From the IMG/VR virus record IMGVR_UViG_3300046715_000149, positions 1-64,000 of that record: DNA of 64,000 nucleotides; one strand, written 5' to 3'. Origin of the DNA: a virus. The translations under genes were made by a program, and so were the position numbers. Shown here in pieces: positions 10,474-36,217 of this stretch. The number at the start of each line of letters is the position of its first letter. The stretch's first letter is position 1. The notes beneath the pieces are model-generated. The model saw only the letters and a list, made by a program, of their open reading frames with translations. It was not told where the DNA came from and did no database searches.

Positions 10474-10577
10474 GCCTGCTCAGGTGCCGTCAAGAAGCTG
10501 CGGCGCTGGCCTATGACATCGAGGCCGCGCGCGTCTTCGGCGAGTATGCACGGCTGAACTTTCCGGAGGGGCGATGA
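10467..10577 (+). CDS. Very small protein
   Basis: A 36-residue frame starting MVSLLRCRQEAAALAY. It overlaps the preceding gene by 7 bases and the exonuclease start by ATGA. Coupling on both sides supports it as a real small gene. It is helical with no known function. Confidence 0.55.
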   Translation: MVSLLRCRQEAAALAYDIEAARVFGEYARLNFPEGR

Positions 10578-11611
10578 AGATCGGAGACCTGGTCACGCCG
10601 ACTGGCCGGCTGGTGCTTCCGCCGGAACGGCTCGGCGGAGACGAGTGGCTGGAGAAACGGCGGTGGCGCGACGAGGTGCCAGGCGGTTACTGCATCGGGT
10701 CGTCCGAGGTGCCGTCGATCCTCGACCTGGAGGGCGTGGACACTCCGGCGCACATCTACCGCCGGAAGGTCTCCAACATCGACACGCCGGTCAATGAGGC
10801 CATGTGGCTCGGGTCCGAGATGGAGGGCGCGATCGCCCTCGCCTGGGCTCGGCGGAACCGGGCGGTCATCGACGAGATCGGGCTGGTCAGCAACGTCGAT
10901 CGGCCGTGGAGGCAGGCGACTATCGACCGTCGCGTCCGTGAATGCCCGGTCTACCGAGACACGAAGAAAGAGTGCCTGCTGGAAATCAAGTTGGTCGGGT
11001 ACTCGTCGGCGGCGAAGTGGAAGCGGGATATCCCGGACCGCGTGCTCGCTCAGATCATCGATCAGCTCATGGTGACTGGCTACGGCCACGCGCACTACGC
11101 CGCGCTGGTCAGTAGCACCCACCTTGCCCAGGGAATCATCTACGCCGACCGCGAGCAGAAGCTGATGGCCTACATCGACGCCGAGGTGGAGCGGTTCCGG
11201 ACCGAGCACCTGCTGACCGGTCGCGAGCCGGAGTGGAACGTCTCGGAGAAGCCCGACAAGATGATCGCGCTCGACGAGGCGACGCACCCGGAACGGGTCG
11301 GCACGCTGGACATCGAGGGCATCGGCGAGGTCATGGAGTACGCCCGGCTCGCACGGCGCAAGGCCGACGCCGAGACCGCGCGCAAGGCGGCCGCCGCGCG
11401 GCTGCGGCAGCTCGCCGATGGCCGGGAGTTCGTGACGTTCGCCGGTCAGCTCGCGTACCGCCTCGGGCCGACCCGCAATACGAACGTCGACCTCGACAAG
11501 CTCAAGGAGAAGTACCCGGACGCGTACGCCGATCCCGAGGTGGTCAGCGAGACGACGTCGCACACGATCTACATCGACAAGGCGTACAAGGTCGGAAAGG
11601 GAGACGAATGA
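10574..11611 (+). CDS. YqaJ/RecB-type exonuclease (viral recombinase)
   Basis: A 345-residue PD-(D/E)xK nuclease of the YqaJ type. Visible motifs are GSSEVPSIL (41-50), GSEMEGAIALAW (80-91), D118 in QATIDRR, LLEIK (135-139) with the catalytic E137 and K139, and a following LAQIIDQLMVTGY helix. Such enzymes resect double-stranded DNA to make 3' tails for strand annealing. The partner ERF annealing protein lies 1 kb downstream in the same operon, forming a Red-like recombination pair. The start overlaps the previous gene by ATGA. Confidence 0.85.
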   Translation: MKIGDLVTPTGRLVLPPERLGGDEWLEKRRWRDEVPGGYCIGSSEVPSILDLEGVDTPAHIYRRKVSNIDTPVNEAMWLGSEMEGAIALAWARRNRAVIDEIGLVSNVDRPWRQATIDRRVRECPVYRDTKKECLLEIKLVGYSSAAKWKRDIPDRVLAQIIDQLMVTGYGHAHYAALVSSTHLAQGIIYADREQKLMAYIDAEVERFRTEHLLTGREPEWNVSEKPDKMIALDEATHPERVGTLDIEGIGEVMEYARLARRKADAETARKAAAARLRQLADGREFVTFAGQLAYRLGPTRNTNVDLDKLKEKYPDAYADPEVVSETTSHTIYIDKAYKVGKGDE

Positions 11612-11793
11612 TGCGGAGGCGGGTTCGGCCCGAGGTGGCGGTAGGGCTGCTCGTGCTCTGCCTCGTGGCGTTCGTCGGCGCCGGGCGGGCGGCGGCGCAC
11701 GGGCACATGGTGGCCAGCATCGTCATCGCGGCCGGGGCGTCGGTCAGCGGGCTGATCGTGATGCTGGCCCAGCCGAGCGGGAGGCGGCGCTGA
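11608..11793 (+). CDS. Small membrane protein
   Basis: A 61-residue protein with two hydrophobic segments (about residues 9-27 and 35-53) separated by a short polar loop. It overlaps the exonuclease stop and the start of the DnaQ-like gene by ATGA and TGATG junctions. Function is unknown. Confidence 0.7.
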   Translation: MMRRRVRPEVAVGLLVLCLVAFVGAGRAAAHGHMVASIVIAAGASVSGLIVMLAQPSGRRR

Positions 11794-12671
11794 TGTGGTG
11801 GAACGGGCGGGCACTGGGATTGGACTTTGAGAGCGATGGGCCGGTGCCGACCGAGGCGCGGGTCATCACGGGCGCGCTGGTGCACCTTCCTGGGCCCGGG
11901 GCTGTGCCGGCCTATCAGGAGATGGAGACCATGCTCCAGCCTGAGCGGGACATCCCGCAGGAGGCGATCGACATCCACGGGATCACGACCGAGCGGGCGC
12001 GGGACGAGGGCGTGCTGCGCGAGGTGGGGATCGCCTCGATCGCCACCACGATCGCCGAGCTCGCCGGGCCGGAGGTGCCGGTGGTCGGGCACAACGTCGT
12101 GTACGACCTGACGCTGCTCGATCGGGAGCTGCGGCGGCTCGGGCTGGGCCGGCTGGAGATCGAGCGCGAGGTGTTCGCGCAGATCCAGCAGGTGCGGATG
12201 GTCCTGGGCGAGCGGCTCGTGGCCACCTTCCCGGTGATCGACACGCTGGTGCTGGACAAGGCCGTCGACCCCTACCGCAAGGGGTCGCGGCGGCTGGTGG
12301 ACGCGGCGACGTTCTACAACGTGCCGATGGCCGAGGGTGCGGCGCACGGGGCCACGGCCGACGTGATCGCCAGCCTGCGGATCGCCATCACGATGGCCAG
12401 GCGGTGCGAGGAGCCATCGGCCACGCTCTTCGAGCGCTACCGCGACCGCAAGAAGCCGCAGGAGGTCGTTGCCGCCTTCTATGCCCTCGGCGCGCGGTCG
12501 CTGGCCGACCTGCACTGCGCTCAGGTGAAGTGGAAGGCGGAGCAGGCCGAGAGGCTGCGGGAGTACTTCCGGCAGAAGGGCACGGCCGACCCGGACAAGG
12601 TGTCGACGGACTGGCCGGTCCAGGCGATCGGCGAGGACGAGGCGGTCGAGACCGTCAGTACGGTGCAGTGA
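11793..12671 (+). CDS. DnaQ-like DEDDh 3'-5' exonuclease
   Basis: A 292-residue protein. Exo I is LDFES with D11 and E13, Exo II is GHNVVYDLTLLDREL with D104, and Exo III is HGATAD with H184 and D189, the DEDDh pattern of DnaQ and RNase T-type exonucleases. The last 100 residues form an extra domain with charged helices. It probably trims 3' ends in replication or recombination and lies between the YqaJ exonuclease and ERF genes. Confidence 0.85.
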   Translation: MWWNGRALGLDFESDGPVPTEARVITGALVHLPGPGAVPAYQEMETMLQPERDIPQEAIDIHGITTERARDEGVLREVGIASIATTIAELAGPEVPVVGHNVVYDLTLLDRELRRLGLGRLEIEREVFAQIQQVRMVLGERLVATFPVIDTLVLDKAVDPYRKGSRRLVDAATFYNVPMAEGAAHGATADVIASLRIAITMARRCEEPSATLFERYRDRKKPQEVVAAFYALGARSLADLHCAQVKWKAEQAERLREYFRQKGTADPDKVSTDWPVQAIGEDEAVETVSTVQ

Positions 12672-12690
12672 GAGACGAGAGGGGACGAGG

Positions 12691-13479
12691 ATGAGTGACC
12701 TGAGGAGCAAGGCCGAGGCGGCCAAGTCGGCGCCGACAGTGACCGACGAGGGGATCGCCAGGGTGCGGGCCGGTCTGGCCGGAAAGTCCCCGGCCGAGCC
12801 GGAGCCGGACGTGACCTACAGCGGCGTCGCGGCCGACCTGGACGTGCCGGTGCACATCGCGTGGCTGCGGGTGATGCAGGATGTGCAGTGGCTCGGTAAG
12901 GAACGGCGCGGGGACAAGTACATGTACCGGGGGATCGACGACGTGATGAACCTCGTCGGGCCGGCCGAGCGCAAGCACGGCGTGTTCGTCATGCCGACCG
13001 GGATCGAGCCGTCGTTCACGACGATCAACACCAAGAGCGGCGCGGCCATGAACTACTGCCGGGCGGTCGTGCACTTCACGATCTACGGGCCCAAGGGTGA
13101 CACCATGACCGCGTCGGTACTCGGCGAGGGATTCGACACCGGCGACAAGTCCGGCAGCAAGGCACAGTCGGTGGCACTGCGGACGCTGTACCTGAACGGG
13201 CTCGCGATCCAGACCAACGAGCCGGCCCGCGACACCGAGTACGGCGACCAGCACGAGATCGCCGGGCCGAAGGCGCCGACGCCGGACGAGTACGCGGCGA
13301 TGATCCTGGACGAGCGAGTGACGCTGCAGCGGCTCCAGCAGATCAAGGCCGAACTGACCGCCGACCGGACGACGGGGGCGTCCGTCGTCGAGGTCTTCGG
13401 GGGGGAGCCGACCCGGCTGATCGACCTCGTGCAGCGGGCAGGCAAGGCCAAGATGAAGCAGCAGGAGGCGCAGGGATGA
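12691..13479 (+). CDS. ERF-family single-strand annealing protein
   Basis: A 262-residue protein. Residues about 55-185 carry the ERF signature: YMYRGIDDVMN, a beta-rich middle, then GEGFDTGDKSGSKAQSVALR. ERF proteins anneal complementary single strands during phage recombination or genome circularisation. The upstream YqaJ-type exonuclease would supply the single strands. A GAGAGGGGACGAGG ribosome-binding region precedes the ATG. Confidence 0.85.
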   Translation: MSDLRSKAEAAKSAPTVTDEGIARVRAGLAGKSPAEPEPDVTYSGVAADLDVPVHIAWLRVMQDVQWLGKERRGDKYMYRGIDDVMNLVGPAERKHGVFVMPTGIEPSFTTINTKSGAAMNYCRAVVHFTIYGPKGDTMTASVLGEGFDTGDKSGSKAQSVALRTLYLNGLAIQTNEPARDTEYGDQHEIAGPKAPTPDEYAAMILDERVTLQRLQQIKAELTADRTTGASVVEVFGGEPTRLIDLVQRAGKAKMKQQEAQG

Positions 13480-13934: not shown

Positions 13935-14174
13935 ATGAAGAAGAATTTTCGGTGCACCGACGATGCCGCGTGGGGGGCGGGACTCGCCAAGGCGGAGGCG
14001 ATGCGGCGCGCGGGCTACGACATCGACATGACCAGCGTGCTCAACACGGCCGTGCGGCAGTTCGCCGACGAGACGCCCGAGGCGAGCGCGGCGCGGTTCG
14101 GACTGGTCAAGGGCGAGAAGCCGGTGGCCATCTACCGCAAGCCGCTGGCCCGGACCGAGCCGGTCGGCCGGTGA
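13935..14174 (+). CDS. Small protein of unknown function, first gene of the helicase operon
   Basis: A 79-residue protein starting MKKNFRCTDDAAWGAGLAKA; a possible ribbon-helix-helix-like arrangement (AGYDIDMTSVLNTAVRQFADE) could bind DNA. AAGGGGAG precedes the ATG. A five-codon frame (ATG at 13921) covers the ribosome-binding site and its stop overlaps this ATG, a possible coupling device. The end forms TGATG with the helicase gene. Confidence 0.65.
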   Translation: MKKNFRCTDDAAWGAGLAKAEAMRRAGYDIDMTSVLNTAVRQFADETPEASAARFGLVKGEKPVAIYRKPLARTEPVGR

Positions 14175-16636
14175 TGGCGTCGTACGCCGACTTCCTGGCC
14201 GGCAAGAGCCAGTACGGCAGCGACGACGGGTTCGCCTACTCGTGGCGGCCCGACTTCCTGTTCGGCTTCCAGGACTCCCTCACCGAGTGGGCCTGCCAGA
14301 TCGGGCGCGGGGCCCTGTTCGCGGACTGCGGGCTCGGCAAGGCTCAGCCGGTTGATGAGCCCGTGCTGACCCCCTCGGGATGGCGGGCGATCGGATCGCT
14401 CGCTGTCGGAGATCAAGTCATCACTGCCGATGGCGAGGCGACCCGGATCATCGGGATGTTCCCGCAGGGTCAGCGGGACACCGTTCGAGTCCGGATGAAC
14501 GACGGGTCTTCGACCGTGTGCGACCGTGACCATTTGTGGACGGTGGCAACCGATCTGGACATTTCCCGTGGCCGACCCTGGCGGACGCTTACCGCTCAGC
14601 AGTTGATCGCGGCCGGACTGGAATTGCCGCCCCGGAACGGGCCCAGATGGAGGGTGCCCGTCGTCGAGGGTGTCCGCCATCCCACCGCAGACCTTCCCAT
14701 CGACCCGTACGTCATGGGTGTGCTTCTCGGAGATGGATCGTTCCGGCCGCCGGGCGGCCCGGAGTTCACTGCGGTGGACGCCCAGATCGCCGCCGAGGTC
14801 AAGACTCGACTCCCTGAGTCGATGCGCCTGTCGATGGACCCCCGTGCTGACCGATCCCAGCAGTACCGCCTTGCGATCGTGGGCGGGGCTGGAAGTGGCG
14901 GACGGTCCAATCCGTTCCTGCAGGCAATCAAGAAATGGGGACTGCACGGAGTCCATTCGAGCGGAAAGTTCATCCCACAGGAGTATCTGTATGGCGACCG
15001 CCATCAGCGACTCGCCCTGCTTCGCGGACTCATGGATACCGACGGATATGTCGCCGCAAGCGGGATGATCCAGTTCGGGTCCTCGTCGCTGCGCCTAGCC
15101 GATGGCGTGACCGAGATCGTGCGAAGCCTGGGCGGAGTCGTCCGGGCCAGCTCGAAGATCCCCACGTACCACCATCTGGGCGAGCGGCGGACCGGGCAGC
15201 GGCACCACGTCCTGACGATCGCCCTACCGAACGGCACCATGCCGTTCCTGCTTGATCGCAAGGTCGCTCGATGCCGTGACCGGTACTACGCCCCTCAGCG
15301 GAAGATCGCGAGTATCGAGCCGGAGGGACGCAGCGAGTGCGTCTGCATTCGGGTCGAGCATCCGTCACAGCTCTATGTCACACGCGACCACATCGTCACG
15401 CACAACACTCCGATGCAGCTCGTGTGGGCCGAGAACGCACGGCGCGCCACCGGCAAGCCCGTGCTCGTGCTGACCCCGCTGGCGGTCGCGTTCCAGACCG
15501 AGACCGAGGCCGCCAAGTTCGGGATCGAGGCCGGCATCTCCCGCGACGGGACGCTGCCTGCGCCGATCACGATCACCAACTACGAGCAGCTCGAGAAGTT
15601 CGACCCGGACAAGTTCGGCGCGGTGGTCTGCGACGAGTCGTCCGCGATCAAGGCATTCGACGGCAAGCGCAAGGCGATCGTGACCGAGTTCCTGCGGACC
15701 GTGCCCTACCGCCTGCTGGCCACCGCCACGGCGGCGCCGAACGACTACGTCGAACTCGGCACCTCCAGCGAAGCGCTCGGCTACCTCGGGCACATGGACA
15801 TGCTCGGCCGCTTCTTCATCAACGCCCAGCGGACCACCACGGCATTCAAGGGCCGGTACATGAACCGTGGCGAGCGGCGGGACGGGTTCATGGATCAGCA
15901 CGGGTGGCGATTCAAGGGTCACGCCGAGGATGCGTTCTGGCGCTGGGTCGTGTCCTGGGCCCGGGCCGTCCGCAAGCCGTCCGACCTCGGCTACTCCGAC
16001 GACGGATACGTGCTACCGGAGCTGCGCGAGATCAAGCACCTGATCGACGCGTCCACTCCTGCCGACGGCCGGCTGTTCGACATCCCGGCGCAGGGGCTGC
16101 ACGAGGAGCGCGAGGAGGCGCGGCGGACCATCCCCGAGCGGTGCGAGAAGGCGGCCGAACTGCTGGTCGACGCCAAGCCTGGTGTGGCATGGTGCCACCT
16201 CAATGACGAGGCCGACCTGCTGGTCAAGCTGATCGACGGCGCCGTCCAGGTGTCCGGGTCCGACTCGCCGCAGGAGAAGGAGGAGAAGCTGCACGCGTTC
16301 TCCGACGGGCAGATCCGGGTGCTGGTCACCAAGCCGAAGCTCGGCGCGTGGGGCCTGAACTGGCAGCACTGCCACCGCATGACCTACTTCCCCAGCCACT
16401 CCTACGAGCAGTGGTATCAGGCCGTCCGGCGCTCATGGCGCTTCGGTCAGACCGAGCCGGTGACCGTGGACATCGTGACCACGCCCGGCGGTGGCCGGAT
16501 CTTCGACAACCTGCACCGCAAGGCGACGGCGGCCGACCAGATGTTCGGCGCGCTGACCAGGCACATGCGTAACGCGCTGGCCGTCAAGCCGATCTCCACC
16601 TACCCGCACCCCGTCGAGATCCCGCCGTGGATCTGA
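14174..16636 (+). CDS. SNF2-type DNA helicase interrupted by an intein
   Basis: An 820-residue precursor whose mature helicase would be 465 residues after removal of a 355-residue intein. Motif I (GLGK then T) is split by the intein after K56. Further motifs are CDESS (motif II), LLATATAAP (motif III), GAWGLNWQHCHR (motif V region) and QAVRRSWRFGQ (motif VI), which is the SNF2/superfamily 2 pattern. It probably remodels or unwinds DNA for replication or modification. The adjacent methyltransferase overlaps its end by ten bases, so the two are likely made together. The start ATG forms TGATG with the preceding gene. Confidence 0.85.
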   Translation: MASYADFLAGKSQYGSDDGFAYSWRPDFLFGFQDSLTEWACQIGRGALFADCGLGKAQPVDEPVLTPSGWRAIGSLAVGDQVITADGEATRIIGMFPQGQRDTVRVRMNDGSSTVCDRDHLWTVATDLDISRGRPWRTLTAQQLIAAGLELPPRNGPRWRVPVVEGVRHPTADLPIDPYVMGVLLGDGSFRPPGGPEFTAVDAQIAAEVKTRLPESMRLSMDPRADRSQQYRLAIVGGAGSGGRSNPFLQAIKKWGLHGVHSSGKFIPQEYLYGDRHQRLALLRGLMDTDGYVAASGMIQFGSSSLRLADGVTEIVRSLGGVVRASSKIPTYHHLGERRTGQRHHVLTIALPNGTMPFLLDRKVARCRDRYYAPQRKIASIEPEGRSECVCIRVEHPSQLYVTRDHIVTHNTPMQLVWAENARRATGKPVLVLTPLAVAFQTETEAAKFGIEAGISRDGTLPAPITITNYEQLEKFDPDKFGAVVCDESSAIKAFDGKRKAIVTEFLRTVPYRLLATATAAPNDYVELGTSSEALGYLGHMDMLGRFFINAQRTTTAFKGRYMNRGERRDGFMDQHGWRFKGHAEDAFWRWVVSWARAVRKPSDLGYSDDGYVLPELREIKHLIDASTPADGRLFDIPAQGLHEEREEARRTIPERCEKAAELLVDAKPGVAWCHLNDEADLLVKLIDGAVQVSGSDSPQEKEEKLHAFSDGQIRVLVTKPKLGAWGLNWQHCHRMTYFPSHSYEQWYQAVRRSWRFGQTEPVTVDIVTTPGGGRIFDNLHRKATAADQMFGALTRHMRNALAVKPISTYPHPVEIPPWI
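14342..15406 (+). other. Class 3-like intein with LAGLIDADG endonuclease
   Basis: This 355-residue insert lies inside the Walker A motif. Its first residue is Ala, not Cys or Ser. It has the Trp-Cys-Thr triplet of class 3 inteins: W66 in DRDHLW, C335 in CVCIRV and T353 in IVTHN. It ends HN and is followed by Thr as the +1 residue. In class 3 inteins the block F cysteine, here C335, starts splicing. Two LAGLIDADG-type motifs are present at about residues 122-133 (YVMGVLLGDGS) and 223-236 (LALLRGLMDTDGYV), so the homing endonuclease looks intact. Confidence 0.85.
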
Positions 16637-17661
16637 GCAAGCCGAGAGGAACCGAGACCGTGGGCAACGTCCTTGACCAGCAGATCACCGACCGATGGGC
16701 CGTCTACAACGGCGACTGCATGGAGGTGATGGCGTCCTACCCGGCCGACTCGCTGCACCTGTCGATCTACTCCCCGCCGTTCGCCGGGCTCTATCACTAC
16801 TCGTCCAGCGAGCGGGACCTGAGCAACAACGTCGACTACGACTCGTTCTTCGCGCACTACGAGCACGTGACCCGGGAGCTGGCGCGGATCACCATGCCGG
16901 GCCGGCGCACGCTGGTGCACTGCATGGACGTGCCGCGGTCGAACAGCGGGCGCAACGACTCGCTGATGGACTTCCCCGGCGACATCATCCGGATGCACGA
17001 ACGGCTCGGCTTCGTCTACACCGGGCGCTACCACGTGTGGAAGGAGCCGCTCGCGGTTCGCAACCGGACCATGACCAAGGGCCTCGCGCACAGGACGATC
17101 GTGGAGGACGCGTCCCAGTGCTCGGTCGCGTCGGCCGACTACCTGCTCGCCTTCCGCAAGCGCGGCGACAACCCGGTGCCGATCGCCAACCCGGTCGGGC
17201 TGATGGAGTACGCCGGATGGCGCACCCCGCCGGCCGAGGTGCTCAGCTACCGCGGGTGGACCGGCAAGCAGACCGAGAACCGCTACTCGCACTGGGTGTG
17301 GAGGCAGTACGCCTCGGCGTTCTGGGACGACATCCGCGGCAACGGCGGTGACCGGGCGCTGGACGAGGGCGCGGTGCTGCCGTTCCGGGCCAGCCGGGAC
17401 GACGACGACGAGAAGCACGTGCACCCGCTCCAGCTCGACGTGATCCACCGTGGCGTGCAGTTGTGGAGCAACCCGGGCGAGACGGTGTTCACGCCGTTCA
17501 TGGGCGTCGGCAGCGAGGTCTACGAGGCGGTGCGGTGCGGACGGCGTGGCGTCGGTGCCGAGCTCAAGACCAGCTACTACAAGCAGGCCGTCCGCAACCT
17601 GGCCACCGTCGACAGGACCGAGCAGGTCGCCGAGACGCTGTTCGACGCGGCGGAGGCGTGA
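16627..17661 (+). CDS. Beta-class N4/N6 DNA methyltransferase
   Basis: A 344-residue protein. Motif IV SPPF is at residues 49-52. The S-adenosylmethionine-binding motif FTPFMGVGSE follows near residue 287, with the later GRRGVGAELKTSYY. The order IV before I marks the beta class of amino-methyltransferases acting on adenine N6 or cytosine N4. The GTG at 16627 overlaps the helicase end; an alternative GTG at 16660 has the better ribosome-binding site AGAGGA. No restriction enzyme is beside it, so self-protection of phage DNA or an epigenetic role with the helicase is likely. Confidence 0.8.
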   Translation: MDLSKPRGTETVGNVLDQQITDRWAVYNGDCMEVMASYPADSLHLSIYSPPFAGLYHYSSSERDLSNNVDYDSFFAHYEHVTRELARITMPGRRTLVHCMDVPRSNSGRNDSLMDFPGDIIRMHERLGFVYTGRYHVWKEPLAVRNRTMTKGLAHRTIVEDASQCSVASADYLLAFRKRGDNPVPIANPVGLMEYAGWRTPPAEVLSYRGWTGKQTENRYSHWVWRQYASAFWDDIRGNGGDRALDEGAVLPFRASRDDDDEKHVHPLQLDVIHRGVQLWSNPGETVFTPFMGVGSEVYEAVRCGRRGVGAELKTSYYKQAVRNLATVDRTEQVAETLFDAAEA

Positions 17662-34182: not shown

Positions 34183-34671
34183 ATGGGCAGCCAGACGCCA
34201 CGCGACGTGACTCACCCGCCGGCCAGGCAGGCAGAGACGTACGAGAAGCGGCGCCGCGCGGCCGAGCTCCGGCGGGCCGGCTGGACGTGGGATGCCGTTG
34301 CCGAAGAGGTCGGCTACTCCAGCAGAGGGTCGGCCCACGCAGCGGTCAAGGCTCTGCTCCAGGAACACCAGTCACTCGCCTACGACGAGATCGCCCTCTA
34401 CCGGCAGGAGTCGCTGGACCGGCTGACCGACCTGCTCAAGGTGGCAATGAAGGGCGCGCTCGCGGGCGACGAGAAGATGATGCGCGAGGCGCGTCTGATC
34501 ATAAGCCAGATCGGCGACCTCACCGGCGAGAAGGCTCCGCTCCAGGTGCAGATCGGGGAGAGCGATGTCGATCGACTTCTTCGGGAAGCTCTCGACGAGT
34601 TCCGACGCCGAACTGCTCAGCTTGATCGGAAAGCTGGAGCAGATCCAGGACGTGCAGCGCAAGACGGCTGA
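34183..34671 (+). CDS. terS: Terminase small subunit
   Basis: A 162-residue protein. The N-terminal part (YEKRRRAAELRRAGWTWD then EEVGYSSRGSAHAAV) is the HTH typical of small terminases that recognise the packaging site; the rest is helical. GCAGGAGAGG precedes the ATG at 34183 (a GTG at 34177 is possible). The last 107 bases overlap the large-subunit gene in another frame. Confidence 0.75.
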   Translation: MGSQTPRDVTHPPARQAETYEKRRRAAELRRAGWTWDAVAEEVGYSSRGSAHAAVKALLQEHQSLAYDEIALYRQESLDRLTDLLKVAMKGALAGDEKMMREARLIISQIGDLTGEKAPLQVQIGESDVDRLLREALDEFRRRTAQLDRKAGADPGRAAQDG

Positions 34672-36217
34672 GCTGTCCCGCTCGGAATTCCGGCAGCGCT
34701 ACCCCACGCCCGGCGCTCTGGCCAAGGCGTACTTCGTCAAGACCAAGCAGACGCCTGCGCTGGACGCCATCGACGAGGCCCTGGTGGACCTGGCGGACGC
34801 CGCCGGCGCTTCGGGCCGGCAGATGATTTTCGTCCCGCCGCAGGAGGGCAAGTCGACCCGCGCGTCCTGCTGGTTCCCGCTCTGGCTGCTCGCGCAGGAT
34901 CCGAGCCTGCGGATCGCGATCGTGGTCTACTCCGCCGAGAAGGCCGAGCGATGGGGCCGCTGGATCCGCCGCATGATCGAGGCGCATCCGGAGCTCGGCA
35001 TCGCCCTGGCGCCGGACAGCCGCGCGGTCGACCGGTTCGAGACCACCGCGGGCGGCGTGGTTCTCTCGGTCGGCATCGACGGCGGCCTGACCTCCGAGGC
35101 GGTCGACCTGCTGATCATCGACGACCCGCTCAAGGGCCGCGCCGAGGCCGAGTCGTCCACCTACCGCAAGCGCTGCTGGGATTGGTGGGAGTCGAACGCC
35201 ATGACCCGCGCGTCGGATCAGTTCCGCGTGGTGCTGATGATGACCCGCTGGCACTCCGACGACCTGGCCGGCCGACTGCTGGCCGAGGAGCCCGGCGAGT
35301 GGAACGTGCTGCGCATCCCCGCGGTGCGCGACGAGGCCTCGGCCCGCGTCCGGGGCAGCGACGGTGCGTCGGTGTTCCATCCGAACGGTGAGCTGATCAG
35401 CGTCCGCAACCGGCCCGCCGGGTGGTTTCTCGGGCTGAAGGCCAAGCGGTCGATGTACGTGTGGAATTCGATCTACATGCAGGTGCCGGTCGCGGCCGAG
35501 GGCAACCTGTTCGCCCGGTCGGACTTCCGCTACTGGTCGTTCATGCAGCCGGACCGCACCCGGCACGACGCGCTGCTCGGCGCTCAGATCAACATTGAGG
35601 GCGTCCGCTTCTTCGTCGCGGACATGGTCCGGTTCATCACCGTCGACCTGGCGGCGAGCAAGAAGACCAGCGCGGACTACACGGTCGTCTCGGTGTGGGG
35701 GATCACCGGAAACGGACGGCTCGTGCTGCTGGACATGAAGCGCGCCCGCCTCGGCGAGGAAGAGCACTGGACGCTGGTCGCCCCGATGTGCAAGCGATGG
35801 GCGTGCCCCGACGTCTACGTCGAGAAGTCGTTCATCTCGTCCACGCTGGTCCGTGACGCCACTCAGCTGGGCTTGCGGATCCAGCCGGTCGCCCCGGACA
35901 CCGACAAGATCACGCGCTCGATCCCGGCGGCCAACCGGGTCAAGGCCCACACCGTGCACTGGCCGGACTACGTGCCCTGGCGCGACGACTGGGAGGACGA
36001 GATCGCGGGCTTTCCGATGTGGGCGCACGACGACATGGCCGACACGCTCTTCTACGCCGGACGGATCGCCTCGGCCCACTGGACTCCGCCGCGCGACGTG
36101 TCCGATAACACCCGCGACCAGCGCGTGGCCCGCGCGTCCGAGGCCGCAGCCGAGCAGGCCTACCGCGCGAGCACCGGCATGAGCGGCGAGATCGACCTCA
36201 GCCGGGCCCAGTGGTGA
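34565..36217 (+). CDS. terL: Terminase large subunit
   Basis: A 550-residue protein. The ATPase part has a Walker-A-like PPQEGKST (about residues 90-97) and Walker B LLIIDDP, and the coupling motif region VVLMMTRWHSDDLAGRLL. The nuclease part starts ITVDLAASKKTSADYTV with the metal-binding Asp. It pumps DNA into proheads and cuts concatemers. GGGGAGAGCG lies directly before the ATG. The length is normal. Confidence 0.9.
   Translation: MSIDFFGKLSTSSDAELLSLIGKLEQIQDVQRKTAELSRSEFRQRYPTPGALAKAYFVKTKQTPALDAIDEALVDLADAAGASGRQMIFVPPQEGKSTRASCWFPLWLLAQDPSLRIAIVVYSAEKAERWGRWIRRMIEAHPELGIALAPDSRAVDRFETTAGGVVLSVGIDGGLTSEAVDLLIIDDPLKGRAEAESSTYRKRCWDWWESNAMTRASDQFRVVLMMTRWHSDDLAGRLLAEEPGEWNVLRIPAVRDEASARVRGSDGASVFHPNGELISVRNRPAGWFLGLKAKRSMYVWNSIYMQVPVAAEGNLFARSDFRYWSFMQPDRTRHDALLGAQINIEGVRFFVADMVRFITVDLAASKKTSADYTVVSVWGITGNGRLVLLDMKRARLGEEEHWTLVAPMCKRWACPDVYVEKSFISSTLVRDATQLGLRIQPVAPDTDKITRSIPAANRVKAHTVHWPDYVPWRDDWEDEIAGFPMWAHDDMADTLFYAGRIASAHWTPPRDVSDNTRDQRVARASEAAAEQAYRASTGMSGEIDLSRAQW

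What the first reader, a model, noticed from the sequence alone, without database searches (positions are those of the whole stretch)
14342..15406. Intein with the Trp-Cys-Thr triplet of class 3 inside the Walker A motif of a phage helicase
The insert begins with Ala, ends HN before Thr, and shows W66, C335 and T353, which is the class 3 signature described first in mycobacteriophage inteins, where the block F cysteine starts splicing. It interrupts GLGK-T, so the helicase is inactive until splicing. It also keeps two LAGLIDADG motifs. Intein placement at a nucleotide-binding site makes splicing a possible control point for the helicase and the coupled methyltransferase operon.
Basis: partly seen in the sequence, partly recalled or inferred. 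Interest (0 to 1): 0.7.

Follow-up and report, generated by a model that had tools for sequence, protein, structure and literature searches.

The report
Class 3 intein in phage helicase
A self-splicing, self-spreading protein insert (an intein of the well-described class 3) sits in the ATP-binding loop of a phage helicase; it is a clear but ordinary new member of a known and widespread family.

Summary
Positions 14342-15406 encode a 355-residue in-frame insert (A1, H64, W66, C335, T353, HN355, then Thr+1) inside DCGLGK|TPMQL of an SF2 helicase (14174-16636; 465 aa after splicing). It is a class 3 intein: W66, C335, T353 and H64 align with Trp67, Cys118, Thr137 and His65 of the experimentally studied M. 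smegmatis DnaBi1 intein, and the AlphaFold2 model (pLDDT 95) matches that structure at 1.4 A over 123 residues. W-C-T is kept in 170 of 175 inteins compared, none with Cys1. Both LAGLIDADG motifs keep their aspartates. The 80 closest helicases are uninterrupted; two (81-82% identical) give exact empty sites at DNA level. The closest intein (61%) lies at the same codon of a much more distant (32%) helicase-methylase of Dactylosporangium, so the intein moved horizontally, probably by homing. The helicase-methyltransferase pair is real and conserved (74 of 74 relatives with room), but it exists without the intein, and the Cys48 that makes DnaBi1 a redox switch is absent. A regulatory role is therefore unsupported. 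New member of a known kind, low interest.

The parts
14174..16636 (+). Intein-bearing SF2 (SNF2-like) helicase gene, 820 aa precursor, 465 aa after splicing; motifs GLGK|T, DESS, TAT, QAVRRSWRFGQ
14174..14341 (+). N-extein, 56 aa, ends DCGLGK
   Evidence: empty sites
14342..15406 (+). Class 3 intein with LAGLIDADG homing endonuclease, 355 aa
14342..14344 (+). Ala1 (no N-terminal nucleophile)
14531..14533 (+). Block B catalytic His64 (B:10); DxxH with D61
14537..14539 (+). Trp66 (B:12) of the WCT triplet
14705..14743 (+). First LAGLIDADG motif PYVMGVLLGDGSF (residues 122-134), catalytic-type D131
15017..15052 (+). Second LAGLIDADG motif LLRGLMDTDGYV (residues 226-237), catalytic-type D234
15344..15346 (+). 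Cys335 (F:4), predicted first nucleophile
15398..15406 (+). Thr353 (G:5), His354, Asn355 at the C-terminal splice junction
15407..16633 (+). C-extein, 409 aa, starts with Thr+1 (second nucleophile and Walker A Thr)
16627..17661 (+). N6_N4_Mtase DNA methyltransferase overlapping the helicase stop by 10 nt; conserved partner of the helicase, fused to it in Dactylosporangium (L180)

Best explanation
This is a class 3 intein with a two-motif LAGLIDADG homing endonuclease, horizontally acquired at the Walker A codon of a phage SF2 helicase. Most likely mechanism: the precursor folds and Cys335 (block F), assisted by His64 and Thr353 and packed against Trp66, attacks the Lys-1/Ala1 bond to give the class-specific branched thioester. 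The N-extein moves to Thr+1, Asn355 cyclises, and an acyl shift leaves the 465-residue helicase with an intact GLGKT. The freed 355-residue intein cuts intein-free alleles at GLGKT and is copied in by repair. Shown here: sequence, predicted fold, conserved residues, empty sites, intein/extein phylogenetic discordance, signs of purifying selection. Inferred from established class 3 biochemistry: splicing and its order. Inferred from motifs: endonuclease activity and homing.
For: Residues and frame exact. In the alignment to M. smegmatis DnaBi1 (PDB 6bs8), H64/W66/C335/T353/D61 fall on His65/Trp67/Cys118/Thr137/Asp62 (PMC6195587). AlphaFold2 model pLDDT 95.3; best splicing-domain match 6bs8 (class 3) Z 20.0, 1.4 A over 123 residues, then 6rix (class 3) Z 19.5; the whole protein matches PI-SceI at Z 27. 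Of 94 phage and IMG/VR relatives plus the window, WCT 90/95, H64 95/95, C335 95/95, no Cys1; of 80 bacterial-genome relatives plus the window, WCT 81/81. The 80 closest helicases are all uninterrupted, two colinear with the window at DNA level. Intein tree: window + L180 supported 100/99; extein tree: window nested among empty helicases 100/100 and far from L180. dN 0.36, dS 1.33 against the L180 intein; splicing part 64% and endonuclease part 60% identical, so both parts appear maintained.
Against: No splicing or cleavage assay was possible. dS of 1.33 is close to saturation, so dN/dS is rough. The AU test does not reject a single origin of the inteins at this site of this helicase family (p 0.111), so the number of acquisitions is uncertain; the window-L180 discordance does not depend on that test. 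The 80 nearest helicases were ranked by tblastn score, which disfavours intein-bearing copies, so 80/80 is not a frequency estimate.
Confidence: 0.94

Rival explanations
1. The intein is a conditional switch: splicing responds to redox or another cue and gates helicase (and helicase-methylase) activity, as shown for M. smegmatis DnaBi1.
For: Cys nucleophile and P-loop site as in DnaBi1, which is inhibited by H2O2 through a Cys48-Cys118 disulfide. The window has other cysteines (C60, C311, C333), and C60 is common in relatives (68/95).
Against: The Cys48 equivalent is Thr47. The intein is sporadic and horizontally acquired while the helicase-methylase module is conserved without it. No regulatory partner is visible.
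Confidence: 0.05
2. Class 1 or class 2 splicing: the intein has a Cys at F:4 but splices by another route, for example direct attack by Thr+1.
For: Some class 1 inteins carry Cys at F:4 (PMC3196547); class 2 inteins also lack the position-1 nucleophile.
Against: No position-1 nucleophile; complete W-C-T with DxxH in block B; nearest fold is a class 3 intein; class 2 is reported only in KlbA.
Confidence: 0.02
3. A degenerate, non-splicing intein (pseudogene), like Arthrobacter FB24 Arth_1007.
For: Precedent for a dead class 3 intein (PMC3196547).
Against: All catalytic residues intact; helicase motifs intact on both sides; dN well below dS over the whole intein.
Confidence: 0.02

Closest known systems
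M. smegmatis DnaBi1 intein (class 3, PDB 6bs8; PMC6195587)
   Same: P-loop insertion in a helicase, no Cys1, W-C-T, DxxH block B, same splicing fold (1.4 A over 123 residues)
   Different: DnaBi1 is a mini-intein without endonuclease and has the redox partner Cys48; this one keeps a LAGLIDADG domain and has Thr at that place
Mycobacteriophage Catera Gp206, mycobacteriophage Bethlehem DnaB and Deinococcus radiodurans Snf2 inteins (splicing-tested class 3, named in PMC3196547)
   Same: Class 3 signature; phage or SNF2-type hosts
   Different: Different host proteins; not sequence-compared here by name
Class 3 inteins in the helicases of Brevundimonas phage Domovoi and Erythrobacter phage L02 (L007, L018)
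   Same: Inserted at GLGK|T of phage helicases with W-C-T and LAGLIDADG
   Different: Only 39-42% identical; different helicases
Dactylosporangium roseum helicase-methylase intein (L180)
   Same: 61% identical intein, same GLGK|T codon
   Different: Host is a fused helicase-methylase only 32% identical in the helicase part

Membership tests
Class 3 intein | No Cys/Ser/Thr nucleophile at intein position 1 | tested here: met
   Ala1
Class 3 intein | Trp at block B position 12 | tested here: met
   W66 aligns with Trp67 of 6bs8; two residues after His64
Class 3 intein | Cys at block F position 4 | tested here: met
   C335 aligns with Cys118 of 6bs8; 95/95 conserved
Class 3 intein | Thr at block G position 5 | tested here: met
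   T353, VTHN
Class 3 intein | Terminal His-Asn and Ser/Thr/Cys at +1 | tested here: met
   HN355, Thr+1 confirmed by empty sites
Class 3 intein | HINT splicing fold | tested here: met
   Model pLDDT 95.3; 6bs8 Z 20.0 at 1.4 A
Class 3 intein | Cys F:4 shown to be the first branch point and splicing observed | not testable with these tools
   needs expression and mutagenesis
LAGLIDADG homing endonuclease | Two LAGLIDADG motifs with acidic residues and pseudo-dimeric fold | tested here: met
   D131 and D234; Pfam PF14528 7e-7; matches PI-SceI and I-DmoI structures
LAGLIDADG homing endonuclease | Cleavage of the intein-free allele | not testable with these tools
   needs an in vitro cutting assay
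Redox-switch intein (DnaBi1-like) | Cys equivalent to Cys48 that forms the inhibitory disulfide | tested here: not met
   Thr47 at the aligned position

The most novel reading that the evidence does not exclude
The intein has been co-opted as a conditional gate on a phage helicase-methylase modification module, with a cysteine other than Cys48 (for example Cys60 or Cys333) as its sensor.
Probability: 0.04. Interest if true: 0.6.

Novelty: new member of a known kind. Interest (0 to 1): 0.2.

Why it matters
It adds a well-bounded class 3 intein with exact empty sites at 81-82% protein identity and a clear case of an intein crossing between very different helicases at the same Walker A codon. It is a ready test pair for class 3 splicing plus homing, but it does not change what is known.

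Tried and rejected
Single-sequence search of IMG/VR with the intein gave only 4 loci, so an alignment was used. Independent acquisition of every intein at this helicase site: suggested by the tree but not shown, AU p 0.111. DnaBi1-like redox switch: Cys48 absent. Related terminase in the Dactylosporangium genome: no match, and no positive control there, so uninformative. A Micromonosporaceae survey failed because the handle form was wrong and was not repeated. The 2011 paper that defines class 3 (PMC3133030) is not held; its definition was taken from PMC3196547 and PMC5050341. The record AY500153 is not in the collection. Model coordinates were not exposed, so active-site distances could not be measured.

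Full report
What is there. The window lies in a 66,492-base uncultivated virus record. A helicase gene runs from ATG 14174 to the stop at 16636. At 14342-15406 it carries an in-frame 355-codon insert between the Lys and Thr of the Walker A motif, DCGLGK|TPMQL. Removing the insert gives a 465-residue protein that aligns from end to end with uninterrupted phage helicases. His64 gives the block B histidine in a DxxH setting.

Which class. Class 3 is defined by lack of a position-1 nucleophile together with Trp B:12, Cys F:4 and Thr G:5 (PMC3196547; PMC5050341). All are met. In the alignment to the M. smegmatis DnaBi1 intein, His64, Trp66, Cys335, Thr353 and Asp61 fall on His65, Trp67, Cys118, Thr137 and Asp62 (residue roles from PMC6195587). 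An AlphaFold2 model on 69 sequences has mean pLDDT 95.3. Its splicing domain is closest to that class 3 structure (6bs8, Z 20.0, 1.4 A over 123 residues, 30% identity) and then to the class 3 M. chimaera DnaB1 intein (6rix). The whole protein matches PI-SceI, an intein with a LAGLIDADG endonuclease, at Z 27.

The family. Homologues occur in 773 phage records. Of 94 phage and IMG/VR relatives plus the window, 90 of 95 keep W-C-T, all keep His64 and Cys335, and none has Cys1; 85 of the 94 relatives follow a Lys and 91 precede Thr or Ser. Of 80 relatives from bacterial genomes plus the window, all 81 keep W-C-T and His-Asn; by my reading of the flanks their hosts include RecG-like, PhoH-like, DnaB-like and SNF2-like proteins. 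A class 3 intein in a helicase P-loop is therefore an established arrangement: M. smegmatis DnaBi1 is one (PMC6195587), and the K|T position is called a classic P-loop insertion in PMC5050341.

How it got there. The 80 helicases closest to the extein are uninterrupted; 77 have an intact GxGK[T/S] and three have a substitution in that motif. L020 and L021, 81-82% identical in protein, are colinear with the window in the surrounding genes; the DNA alignment breaks at 14341 and resumes at 15403-15406, and both read straight through AAG|ACG. That ranking disfavours interrupted copies, and four more members of this helicase family do carry an intein at the same site (L106, L119, L131, L148). The nearest intein of all, 61% identical, is in the chromosome of Dactylosporangium roseum (L180), at the same codon of a helicase only 32% identical. 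L106, whose extein is 53% identical to the window's, has an intein only about 41% identical. The intein tree joins the window to L180 (100/99), while the extein tree places the window inside intein-free phage helicases (100/100), far from L180. The intein therefore moved horizontally. Third-position GC (0.76 against 0.94-1.00 in the helicase) agrees. A single origin of the inteins at this site is not rejected (AU p 0.111). Splicing and endonuclease parts are about equally conserved with L180 (64% and 60%), with dN 0.36 and dS 1.33 (dS is near saturation). The two LAGLIDADG aspartates are retained in 92 and 95 of 95 sequences. Active splicing and homing are the likeliest state.

The control-point idea. 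The methyltransferase (16627-17661, N6_N4_Mtase) overlaps the helicase stop by 10 nt, and the pairing is genuine: 74 of 74 intein-free relatives with at least 1 kb downstream have it adjacent, and in L180 the two are one polypeptide. The pairing is kept without the intein, and protein splicing should not act on the neighbour's translation. DnaBi1 senses oxidation through a Cys48-Cys118 disulfide (PMC6195587); the aligned residue here is Thr47. The helicase is very probably inactive until splicing, but nothing indicates that splicing is regulated.

Verdict. Observation confirmed. Class assignment supported. Regulatory reading unsupported. New member of a known kind.

Noticed in passing
window 14174-17661; L020-L099; L180:2501-3559 and flanks: SF2 helicase and N6_N4 DNA methyltransferase form a strictly conserved phage gene pair (74/74 relatives with room downstream) and are fused into one 1222-aa ORF in Dactylosporangium roseum; function of the pair unknown.
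   Followed up: partly
L240 (Sediminivirga luteola): A class 3 intein in the same wider helicase family as L180 but at a different site (GQAL|T instead of GLGK|T).
   Followed up: no
L119:245-1273: Relative at the same helicase site with the block B Trp replaced by His (DHLH) while Cys and Thr are kept; a natural variant of the WCT triplet.
   Followed up: no
L138, L141, L175, L005: Relatives with Ser, Leu or Pro at the G:5 Thr column (WCS, WCL, WCP by alignment); natural variants, possible decay or alignment error.
   Followed up: no
window 10574-13479: Recombination module beside the helicase: YqaJ/RecE-like exonuclease, RNase_T exonuclease, ERF annealing protein.
   Followed up: no
window 34565-36217: Terminase large subunit only about 36% identical to its nearest phage records (Arthrobacter, Glutamicibacter, Brevibacterium phages): a distant, probably actinobacterial, uncultivated phage.
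   Followed up: no
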